Below the pieces are notes generated by a model that was not told the DNA's origin, did not search any database, and was given only the letters and a program-made list of their open reading frames with translations. Below are positions 32,306 through 51,684 of a DNA stretch of 51,689 nucleotides, in pieces (the stretch's first letter is position 1; the number at the start of each line of letters is the position of its first letter). This stretch comes from a virus. The translations under genes were made by a program, and so were the position numbers. The stretch spans positions 1 through 51,689 of the IMG/VR virus record IMGVR_UViG_3300045136_000373. One strand, given 5' to 3'.

Positions 32306-32392
32306 ATATTATCAAATAATAAGAAAAGTATTTCCTGAAGCGTTTGCAGAGGGAATAGAGGGTGTCGGGTTACACCCAATCAGAGTAAACAT
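32306..32392 (+). repeat. 87-bp direct repeat, copy 1
   Basis: Identical over 87 nt to 51591-51677. It contains a hairpin GGGTGT-N6-ACACCC. Read in frame it is the end of a protein (with VFPEAFAEGIEGVGLHPIRV), so it is duplicated coding DNA rather than a regulatory repeat. Confidence 0.95.
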
Positions 32393-34093: not shown

Positions 34094-34846
34094 ATGCAAT
34101 CATTCAAAAGCTTTATCCTAAACGAAGATTATTCCAGAACTCAAATATCAAAAGAAGATACCATTGACTTCATTTTGGAAAATTGTCAACAATGGTTTCA
34201 GGAAATTTATGGAAAAACGTTAAAAAATGAAAAAGATCTAATACAAACATTTGAAAAGAAAAGATTCTATTTGTATCGTGGAATCAGAATTGACGATTAT
34301 TCATTGATTGAAACTGCATCTGATAACAGACCTCCACGAGATACACCATTACCTATTTATAATGCTATCGTTGAAGCTATGAAAAAATTAGGTTTTTCTG
34401 TACATCGTGGTAATTGTCTTTTTGCAACAAATTCAAGGCAACAGGCCAAATTGTATTCAATTGATATAGAACCATATTTAGTATTTCCTATAGATGGATA
34501 TCAGTATACTTATTCTCCCAAAATCAAAGATCTTTATGAAATGGTTAGAACTGTTGATTCCATATTGAAATTAAACAAGTTATTTCCAAATATTGAAATG
34601 CTCAAAAAATATATTGAAGAAGAAGATTATGATCTTGAATATTTGGAAGATTATCCAATTGAAGAGATTATCAACACTATTCCAGATAGTCAATTTTTAG
34701 AAACAATATTTCAAGTAGATGAACAATATCTCAAAAAAGAATATAATTTCAAAAAAACAGACATCAAAACTTTGATATTTAATTCAAAAAAAGAAATTGA
34801 AATAATGTTCCGCCCCAAACTGTTTTTGACGCAGTGGAGACCATAA
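34094..34846 (+). CDS. Candidate capsid-packaged ADP-ribosyltransferase-like protein
   Basis: 250 residues, starting 1 nt after the endolysin stop. N-terminal MQSFKSFILNE resembles the T4 capsid-targeting tag MKTYQEFIAE, cut after Glu by the prohead protease. Then CQQWFQEIYG, LYRGIRIDD (possible catalytic Arg), SDNRPPRDTP, LFATNSRQQAKLYS and EPYLVFPIDGYQYTYSPKIK, in the R, S/T, E order of Alt/ModA-like enzymes. Full-length paralogues are at 35622 and a broken one at 34846. Function is inference; the tag suggests injection with the DNA. Confidence 0.6.
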   Translation: MQSFKSFILNEDYSRTQISKEDTIDFILENCQQWFQEIYGKTLKNEKDLIQTFEKKRFYLYRGIRIDDYSLIETASDNRPPRDTPLPIYNAIVEAMKKLGFSVHRGNCLFATNSRQQAKLYSIDIEPYLVFPIDGYQYTYSPKIKDLYEMVRTVDSILKLNKLFPNIEMLKKYIEEEDYDLEYLEDYPIEEIINTIPDSQFLETIFQVDEQYLKKEYNFKKTDIKTLIFNSKKEIEIMFRPKLFLTQWRP

Positions 34847-35097
34847 TGAAAAATTTCAGAAGCTATATACTGGAAAATAAAAACATCAAAGAAATAAAAA
34901 GCGATATTTTTTCGTTTATTTTGAACAAATGCCAACAATGGTTTAACGAACTTGAAGCACCAAAATTTCAAAAAGAAAAAGAATTAGTTGAATGGTTGAT
35001 AAGTCAAAAATATTCACTATATCGTTCAGTTGGAAATCTTCCAAGTGGAACATATATAAATAATGCAGAAAATTATAGATTACAAGAAAACTTAGCC

Positions 35098-35383
35098 GAA
35101 AGCCCACGACTTTAGTCGTTGGGATGAAGGCTTATTAGATACTTGACACCTATCTAATATTATGCTATATTATAAATAGAGATAGATTAGGTGCTATAAA
35201 TATAATGAAAGCACCTGTGGTAGATGGTGTAGCTTAAAGCGATAGTCTGCCAGCCCAAGATGCTATATGTACTGTCTTGGGAGGGGTGATGACACACCCT
35301 AAACTTTGGGGAACTACAGATACCAGAAATGGACTTCCGACTACCACCAAAGAATCCCCTGACTTTAGTCATGGGGGGTGTCA
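35098..35383 (+). mobile_element. Short IS200/IS605-type element without transposase, with structured RNA
   Basis: Both ends carry subterminal hairpins typical of this family. The left is CCCACGAC-TTTA-GTCGTTGGG (35103-35123) and the right CCCCTGAC-TTTA-GTCATGGGG (35356-35376), each with a bulged T, followed by GGTGTCAA. Neither tnpA nor tnpB is present. Inside are a promoter (35143) and stems AGGTGC/GCACCT (35189-35216) and CCCAAGA/TCTTGGG (35254-35281), like the right part of a TnpB guide RNA. A non-autonomous element (PATE-like) is the best fit. Confidence 0.75.
35143..35171 (+). promoter_or_regulatory. Sigma70 promoter inside the mobile element
   Basis: TTGACA (35143-35148), N17, TATATT (35166-35171). 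A late-like TATAAATAG (35170-35178) overlaps it. It would transcribe the structured stretch up to the right hairpin. Confidence 0.7.
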
Positions 35384-35621
35384 AAAAAAGATAATCGGAA
35401 ATATGAAAATAACACAAACAGAAATGATGAAAAAGTTTCAAAAAGAATATTCCGCCGACGAATTATTGGAGATATTCAAAATTGATGAAAAGGTATTACA
35501 AGAATTGTATGATTTCACAAATAAAGATATCAGAAACTATATATTAACCAAAAGCAACAAAGCCATTGAAATTATGATTCGTCCAAAAGCAGTAATGCTA
35601 TATATTTAAAGGAACTGCCCT

Positions 35622-36245
35622 ATGAAATCCTTAAAACAATTTCAAGAAAATTCAGATAGAATCAACTATTCCTTTATCTTCAATAATTGTACACAATGGT
35701 TCACTGAGGTCTTGGGGGGAAAACCAAAATCTGTTGACGAAATTAAAGAATTTTTGAACAATGAAATTTACAACTTATATATGGGAATTTTTGAAACAAA
35801 AAATACTATTACTGCGTCCCCCGAAGATCGTTTCCTTTTACAAGGAAATATTACATTATTTTCAAAAAAAGAACAAGAAACCCGCATTATTTTGGACAAA
35901 ACATTCAAAAAACTTGGATTTGAAGCAACTCCGCTAAACTCTTTTGTTTGTTATACTTCCAAGGAAGATGCGATGGTTGATGGCGGAAAACCATATCTTG
36001 TTTTCCCGTTAGATGGTTACAAATACGCTTATTCTCCATTTGTTGGGGATATTCTGTTTTTTGTGAAAGACATGTTAAAAAAATTAGAATACGATGACTC
36101 CCACGATCGTGTAACATTAGACGAAAGAGAATTTCAAGAAAAACTGCAATATAGAAATAGCGGACTTGGTAAATATGTAAAACTAAGAAAAGAATTTCAG
36201 GTGTTCCTGCACGGGTCTGTCTATCTTGTCAAAATGATAAAATAA
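35622..36245 (+). CDS. Paralogue of the 34094 protein, candidate packaged protein
   Basis: 207 residues. MKSLKQFQENSDR start, then CTQWFTEVLGGK, YNLYMGIFE (Met where 34094 has Arg), LGFEATPLNSFVCYTSKEDA and PYLVFPLDGYKYAYSPFVGD. The C-terminal FQVDE segment is missing, so it ends earlier than 34094. Loss of the LYRG Arg suggests a changed or lost activity. Preceded by AAAGGAAC-like weak ribosome site. Confidence 0.65.
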   Translation: MKSLKQFQENSDRINYSFIFNNCTQWFTEVLGGKPKSVDEIKEFLNNEIYNLYMGIFETKNTITASPEDRFLLQGNITLFSKKEQETRIILDKTFKKLGFEATPLNSFVCYTSKEDAMVDGGKPYLVFPLDGYKYAYSPFVGDILFFVKDMLKKLEYDDSHDRVTLDEREFQEKLQYRNSGLGKYVKLRKEFQVFLHGSVYLVKMIK

Positions 36246-51471: not shown

Positions 51472-51684
51472 ATGAAAAGATTTAAAAATTTTCTACTAAT
51501 TGAAAATGATAAAAAAAGACCAGTAGAAATGAAACTTGAAAAAGCAATTGAATTTATCAACGAAAATTGCAAACAATGGCTACGCGAAGCATATTATCAA
51601 ATAATAAGAAAAGTATTTCCTGAAGCGTTTGCAGAGGGAATAGAGGGTGTCGGGTTACACCCAATCAGAGTAAACATAGCTTGA
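51472..51684 (+). pseudogene. Truncated family member fused to the 87-bp repeat
   Basis: 70 residues. The N-terminus MKRFKNFLLIENDKK and EKAIEFINENCKQWLREA is that of the 34094 family. From codon 41 it is the 87-bp repeat (YYQIIRKVFPEAF to RVNI), then stops after one more codon. It looks like a recombinant stub, although the intact frame and AAGGAAG ribosome site could still make a short protein. Confidence 0.6.
51591..51677 (+). repeat. 87-bp direct repeat, copy 2
   Basis: Identical to 32306-32392, in frame inside the stub gene at 51472. Confidence 0.95.

What the first reader, a model, noticed from the sequence alone, without database searches (positions are those of the whole stretch)
34846..35609. 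ART-like gene interrupted by a TnpB-less IS605-type element with an omega-RNA-like core
Both end hairpins have the bulged T of the IS200/IS605 family. The 260-nt interior has a sigma70 promoter and stems but no gene. An element this short that keeps a guide-RNA-like transcript may ride on TnpA/TnpB elsewhere, or the RNA may have a life of its own in the phage.
Basis: partly seen in the sequence, partly recalled or inferred. Interest (0 to 1): 0.75.

Follow-up and report, generated by a model that had tools for sequence, protein, structure and literature searches.

The report
TnpB-less IS605 remnant in a phage
A 301-base leftover of a bacterial jumping gene, which has lost both its protein genes but kept its ends, its promoter and its guide-RNA sequence, sits in a damaged gene of a T4-like phage; such shrunken elements are known, and this one is mainly interesting as a guide-RNA unit that would need its enzymes from elsewhere.

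Summary
The element is real: 301 nt (35084-35384), inserted 3' of TTAC and ending in TCAA, with bulged-T hairpins at both ends. It is an internal-deletion derivative of a full IS200/IS605 element encoding TnpA and TnpB. Relative L014 (1,715 nt) aligns at its first 92 and last 209 bases only, and the left end is 98% identical to copies in a Clostridiaceae MAG. The deletion removed tnpA and all but about 19 codons of tnpB, and placed the ancestral left-end promoter (TTGACA-17-TATATT) just upstream of a complete omegaRNA. That RNA is a strongly covarying family (43 sequences; 97% of cells paired); all 34 pairs tested are intact here. No tnpA or tnpB was found in the window or its three phage relatives, all fragments. 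TnpB-less relatives carrying the same omegaRNA do transpose in bacteria: one Bacilli genome has seven near-identical copies with different flanks. The host gene has lost roughly 100-120 codons besides being interrupted, and 'ART-like' has no support here. Best reading: a PATE-type non-autonomous element dependent on TnpA and TnpB supplied in trans, possibly now inert. The anatomy matches a published 271-nt Halanaerobium PATE. New member of a known kind; moderate-low interest.

The parts
34846..35083 (+). left remnant of the host phage gene (unknown function; one of three tandem paralogues), ending in the TTAC target at 35080-35083
   Evidence: aligns to residues 2-83 of the intact L011 orthologue; synteny with L011 6738-7532
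35080..35083 (+). TTAC target tetranucleotide (expected TAM)
   Evidence: TTAC precedes the left end in nearly all of the 26 distinct left ends listed (exceptions such as L107, L116, L121 differ)
35084..35384 (+). whole 301-nt non-autonomous IS200/IS605-type (PATE-like) element
   Evidence: global alignment to the first 92 and last 209 nt of the L014 full-length element; boundary comparison
35103..35123 (+). left-end hairpin, bulged T at 35119
   Evidence: sequence and fold
35143..35171 (+). ancestral left-end sigma70-like promoter TTGACA-17-TATATT; expected start near 35178
   Evidence: the same site in left ends of full-length relatives
35176..35180 (+). internal deletion junction (about 1,414 nt lost relative to L014)
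35178..35237 (+). last 19 codons and stop of tnpB (RDRLGAINIMKAPVVDGVA*)
   Evidence: TnpB C-termini of L014, L008, L006, L015
35178..35384 (+). omegaRNA (reRNA) scaffold; stems 35218-35225/35245-35252, 35254-35260/35275-35281, 35284-35288/35295-35299, 35304-35309/35347-35352 and the right-end hairpin
   Evidence: covariation over 43 sequences; 34 of 34 pairs intact in the window
35356..35376 (+). right-end hairpin, bulged T at 35372
   Evidence: sequence and fold
35381..35384 (+). right-end cleavage tetranucleotide TCAA
   Evidence: GTGTCAA at all but one (L093) of the right ends listed
35385..35404 (+). inferred guide segment (flank 3' of the right end)
   Evidence: position by homology with reRNA (PMC8612924 passages); single match in the window even at 3 mismatches
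35385..35609 (+). right remnant of the host gene
   Evidence: aligns to residues 205-252 of the L011 orthologue

Best explanation
A non-autonomous (PATE-type) IS200/IS605 element. Shown by sequence: a full TTAC-specific element with tnpA and tnpB lost about 1.4 kb internally, leaving its left end with promoter, the last 19 codons of tnpB, the complete omegaRNA and the right end. Inferred: (1) the left-end promoter makes a short RNA of scaffold plus guide that would need little trimming; (2) Y1 TnpA supplied by a full copy in the host or a co-infecting phage recognises the two hairpins and can peel out and re-insert the element 3' of TTAC; (3) TnpB from the same source can load the RNA and cut the TTAC-plus-flank joint left by excision, so the element would be kept or copied back. 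In this phage the unit depends on enzymes from elsewhere.
For: Ends, target and RNA match full-length TnpA+TnpB elements. Left end 98% identical over 96 nt to four copies in a Clostridiaceae MAG (G012) and RNA part 89-96% identical to copies in G010. The omegaRNA is a covarying family: 97.3% of cells paired against 35-49% when slid, 17 of 34 pairs with changes on both sides, all pairs intact in the window. TnpB-less relatives move: seven near-identical copies with different flanks in G762 and two copies 98% alike in Aneurinibacillus danicus, whose genome also holds a TnpA+TnpB copy. Five of 23 genome loci with 1,900 nt upstream held had no TnpB on the + strand. Published precedent: 271-nt PATE with left end, last 58 nt of tnpB and whole right end (PMC7290912 section 3.8).
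Against: No transcript, excision or cleavage data. One insertion only in this phage lineage. No tnpA or tnpB in the window or three related fragments. No element spanning the full 301-nt query in the bacterial genomes searched, so this exact derivative has not been seen to amplify (one search scored only two candidates per genome). The right end differs from most relatives (GGGGGG against GGGGAG before TGTCAA), with two extra G in L002. The flank 3' of the element is not the ancestral continuation of the gene. Host unknown; a 15.3-kb stretch of the phage matched none of 8 candidate genomes.
Confidence: 0.62

Rival explanations
1. Same origin, but an inert relic: the deletion happened in or just before entry into the phage, nothing in the phage's usual host supplies TnpA or TnpB, and the element persists only because the broken gene is dispensable.
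For: Single shared insertion in three nearly identical records; host gene also lost roughly 100-120 codons; element differs between window and L002 at several sites including the right-end spacer; decaying copies with truncated RNA occur in bacteria (L121, L042).
Against: Every RNA pair tested, the promoter, both hairpins and both cleavage sites are intact; TnpB-less relatives are mobile elsewhere.
Confidence: 0.3
2. A domesticated guide RNA: the phage uses the omegaRNA with a host TnpB or a nuclease-dead TnpB relative to regulate or cut a chosen DNA, in the manner of phage-encoded TldR.
For: Phage-encoded TnpB-derived RNA-guided regulators exist (PMC13418256 passages); this RNA has its own promoter.
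Against: No TnpB-like protein in the window; the guide is simply the flank of the insertion, with no second match in the window at 3 mismatches and none but the same insertion among viral contigs for a longer stretch of the flank.
Confidence: 0.06
3. An IStron-like or self-splicing element that removes itself from the transcript and restores the gene.
For: It interrupts a gene in the sense orientation and is strongly structured.
Against: No group I or II intron match in Rfam; removing exactly 301 nt leaves the two gene pieces out of frame (phase 1 against 2); about 100-120 codons are missing anyway.
Confidence: 0.01

Closest known systems
PATE-like IS605 element of Halanaerobium hydrogeniformans (PMC7290912, section 3.8 read)
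   Same: Short (271 nt); left-end hairpin, no tnpA, last 58 nt of tnpB, entire right end, which is where TnpB reRNAs lie.
   Different: That left end is 28 nt with no promoter described and comes from an element with divergent tnpA/tnpB; bacterial chromosome; published before TnpB reRNA was described. Here the left end is about 95 nt, with a promoter, in a phage.
PATEs of Haloquadratum walsbyi (PMC3119063, passages seen)
   Same: Transposase-free, near-terminal palindromes, no target duplication, some arising from IS605-type elements by core deletion; some mobile.
   Different: Archaeal; extreme forms keep only fused ends (52 bp); omegaRNA content not discussed in the passages seen.
IS608 and ISDra2 type elements with TnpB reRNA (PMC8612924, PMC10278001, passages seen)
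   Same: TTAC target (IS608), subterminal hairpins, RNA covering the 3' end of tnpB and the right end, guide from the flank.
   Different: Those encode TnpA and TnpB; this copy encodes neither.
Full-length element in viral contig L014 (IMGVR_UViG_3300020032_000002)
   Same: 92% identity over the first 92 nt, 95% over the last 209 nt; same target and ends.
   Different: 1,715 nt with intact-looking tnpA and tnpB.

Membership tests
IS200/IS605 family (IS608-like) | Subterminal imperfect hairpins at both ends | tested here: met
IS200/IS605 family (IS608-like) | Insertion 3' of a fixed tetra/pentanucleotide, no target duplication | tested here: met
   TTAC on the left, TCAA at the right end, in this copy and in most relatives at different sites
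IS200/IS605 family (IS608-like) | Y1 (HUH) TnpA in the element | tested here: not met
   no PF01797 in the window; present in full-length relatives L014, L013 and in the L009 record, so this is a derivative, not an autonomous member
PATE (palindrome-associated transposable element) | No terminal inverted repeats, near-terminal palindromes, no target duplication, too short for a transposase, related to an IS605 element | tested here: met
   definition from PMC3119063 passages
PATE (palindrome-associated transposable element) | Mobilised in trans | not testable with these tools
   shown only indirectly for relatives
TnpB omegaRNA (reRNA) | RNA region spanning the 3' end of tnpB and the right end, ending at the element boundary | tested here: met
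   by homology and covariation
TnpB omegaRNA (reRNA) | RNA is made and bound by TnpB with the flank as guide | not testable with these tools
   needs RNA-seq and binding assays
IStron / group I intron element | Catalytic intron core restoring the reading frame | tested here: not met
   no Rfam intron match; frame not restored
ADP-ribosyltransferase (host gene) | ART family or fold | tested here: inconclusive
   no ART family in Pfam or PHROGs, no PDB sequence match, fold model too poor

The most novel reading that the evidence does not exclude
The deletion created a minimal, promoter-driven omegaRNA gene riding in a lytic-type phage: it would borrow TnpB from resident IS copies in the infected cell and cut phage genomes that carry the joined TTAC-plus-flank sequence, an RNA-only homing drive between phages.
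Probability: 0.08. Interest if true: 0.8.

Novelty: new member of a known kind. Interest (0 to 1): 0.35.

Why it matters
It shows how one internal deletion can turn an IS605-type transposon into a self-promoted guide-RNA unit that still has both ends. With the multi-copy TnpB-less relatives found in Bacilli, it makes testable whether such units are parasites of TnpA alone or also use TnpB in trans to bias their own inheritance, including in phages.

Tried and rejected
ART label: Pfam, PHROGs and PDB sequence searches and an AlphaFold model gave no support, and the model (mean pLDDT 37.7) was too poor for a fold search, so none was run. Intron or IStron: no Rfam match and wrong frame. Known RNA family: no Rfam match to the element even at E <= 10. 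Second target for the guide: none in the window at 3 mismatches; a 26-nt stretch of the right flank was found only in the two records with the same insertion. tnpA/tnpB nearby: none in the window or its three relatives, all fragments. Host: 15.3 kb of the phage against 8 genomes that hold the element family, no match; the tool notes an empty answer shows nothing without a positive control. The same 301-nt unit in bacteria: none spanning the whole query in 6 genomes by handle, 391 of the class of G012 or 38 of the order of G009; one search scored two candidates per genome, so it can miss copies. L126 matched the core pattern but has no right end and was dropped as chance.

Full report
What is there. 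The window is an IMG/VR virus record (51,689 bases) from a T4-like phage: its DNA polymerase is about 45% identical to those of cyanophages. Between two tandem genes of unknown function (34094-34846, 35622-36245) lies a third, broken gene that holds a 301-nt insertion at 35084-35384. The insertion starts after TTAC (35080-35083) and ends in TCAA (35381-35384). Comparison with relatives at other sites fixes these ends: TTAC precedes most left ends and GTGTCAA closes all but one of the listed right ends. Both ends carry hairpins with a bulged T. The whole element folds with z -6.0.

Origin. Pattern scans found 8 stretches with the right end and 10 with the RNA core in viral contigs, and 65 with the core in genome contigs. 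L014 (viral) is a full element: left end, Y1 TnpA (PF01797, E 1.7e-44), TnpB (PF07282, E 5.2e-27), RNA, right end. The window element aligns to its first 92 nt (85 identical) and last 209 nt (199 identical) and to nothing between. The left end is 98% identical over 96 nt to four copies in a Clostridiaceae MAG, and the RNA part is 89-96% identical to copies in another. So this is an internal-deletion derivative. What survives of tnpB is its last 19 codons (35178-35237). The promoter TTGACA-17-TATATT is the ancestral left-end promoter: of ten left ends of relatives printed, nine have TTGACA (L106 has TTGATA) and eight have TATATT (L049 and L125 have TATGTT); in those where the sequence continues, the tnpA start codon follows some 30 nt later. 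The deletion therefore put the RNA directly behind that promoter.

The RNA. I aligned 43 distinct copies from window and loci (all with the core pattern, a recognised right end and 67 nt upstream; dropped: copies cut by contig ends, identical copies, copies with N, and L067 and L072 without a right end) and counted a five-stem structure taken from the window: 97.3% of cells pair, against 35-49% when slid, with 17 of 34 pairs showing changes on both sides (0 of 500 shuffles as high). In MAFFT's alignment four pairs of stem 1 have letters in only 14 rows. The window copy pairs at 34 of 34; a broken copy, L042, at 18 of 26. The RNA is thus a conserved, selected structure of the family, and intact here; that says nothing about use in this phage.

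The phage locus. L002/L010 and L007/L012 (two other IMG/VR records, 99.8-99.9% identical) carry the same insertion. L011, 83-89% identical, lacks it and has the intact gene at the same place. Against that gene the left piece covers residues 2-83 and the right piece aligns from 205 to 252, so roughly 100-120 codons are missing. Either the gene had shrunk before insertion, or a deletion followed at the element's right edge. Exact loss of 301 nt would not restore the frame. ART-likeness found no support.

How common TnpB-less copies are. Among the 11 viral stretches, L126 is not a member; of the other ten plus the window, five lack TnpB beyond a stub (window, L002, L007 sharing one insertion; L003; L004) and six (L006, L008, L009, L013, L014, L015) carry TnpB sequence. 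L159 adds another viral TnpB-less element of a different type. In genomes, 5 of the 23 loci with 1,900 nt upstream held show no TnpB on the + strand (the other 42 of 65 had less upstream held). Those are low-copy elements of about 390-440 nt in Exiguobacterium, Ectobacillus and Aneurinibacillus that share an interior of their own. A 21-nt pattern from that interior hit 8 of 398 Bacilli genomes; one, G762, holds seven near-identical copies, each TTAC|...GTGTCAA| with different flanks. That is sequence evidence that TnpB-less, omegaRNA-bearing members of this family transpose, presumably with TnpA in trans. The window's copy is not of that type; it is a separate deletion.

Mechanism. Shown: origin, boundaries, promoter sequence, RNA structure, absence of enzymes in the records searched. 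Inferred from established biology (TnpA peel-and-paste; TnpB-reRNA cutting the donor joint; TnpB trimming only the 5' side of its RNA; PMC8612924 and PMC10278001 passages): an RNA from about 35178 with the guide 35385 onward, usable by a TnpB supplied in trans, and mobility by TnpA supplied in trans. An inert relic is the main rival.

Comparison with print. The nearest published thing is the 271-nt PATE-like element of Halanaerobium hydrogeniformans: left-end hairpin, last 58 nt of tnpB, whole right end (PMC7290912 section 3.8). PATEs from core deletions of IS605 elements are described in Haloquadratum (PMC3119063 passages). I found no report of a TnpB-less omegaRNA element in a phage in the listings of seven answered library searches, but key papers (Meers 2023, Altae-Tran 2021) are not held, so this absence is weak.

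Noticed in passing
L145, L152, L154-L158 (genome G762); L018, L022, L050, L062, L024, L078, L146, L149, L151: A class of TnpB-less IS605-type elements (about 390-440 nt) in Bacilli with a shared interior between left end and omegaRNA, without resemblance to tnpA/tnpB found: stem-loops each followed by TAAAAC (GACAAGTACAAGTCTCTAAAAC, GGTAAAAC, GTCGTCA..AAGACGCTAAAAC). Seven near-identical copies in G762 with different flanks. No Rfam match in the five loci of this class scanned; single-sequence folds of three interiors are unremarkable (z -0.7 to -1.8). Function unknown; possibly the more novel lead.
   Followed up: partly
L159:2150-2530 (IMGVR_UViG_3300031673_006372): A viral contig with a TnpB-less element of that Bacilli-like interior type, TTAC on the left and GTGTCAA on the right.
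   Followed up: partly
L003:2890-3166 and L121 (G010 C55): A second solo element (about 273 nt) in another viral contig, with a different interior that lacks the left-end promoter; a decayed relative with truncated RNA in a Clostridiaceae MAG.
   Followed up: partly
L004:1690-2515: A shrunken IscB-type element (HEARO RNA, Rfam 166 bits, plus a 106-aa ORF that looks like an IscB N-terminus, a recalled resemblance) directly followed by a TnpB-type omegaRNA and right end: two guide-RNA remnants back to back in one viral contig.
   Followed up: partly
L009 record (G005) 95892-98064: Composite in a 126.5-kb viral record: two TnpA hits, a TnpB and a second TnpB C-terminus in a row, as if one IS605 element had inserted into another.
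   Followed up: no
window 32306-32392 and 51591-51677: An 87-nt stretch near the record's right end is identical to one at about 32306; a real repeat or an assembly artefact.
   Followed up: no
window 34094-36245; L011 5223-8152: Tandem array of at least three paralogous phage genes of unknown function (PHROG 11975/15932) upstream of the DNA polymerase, with a further truncated paralogue in L011.
   Followed up: partly
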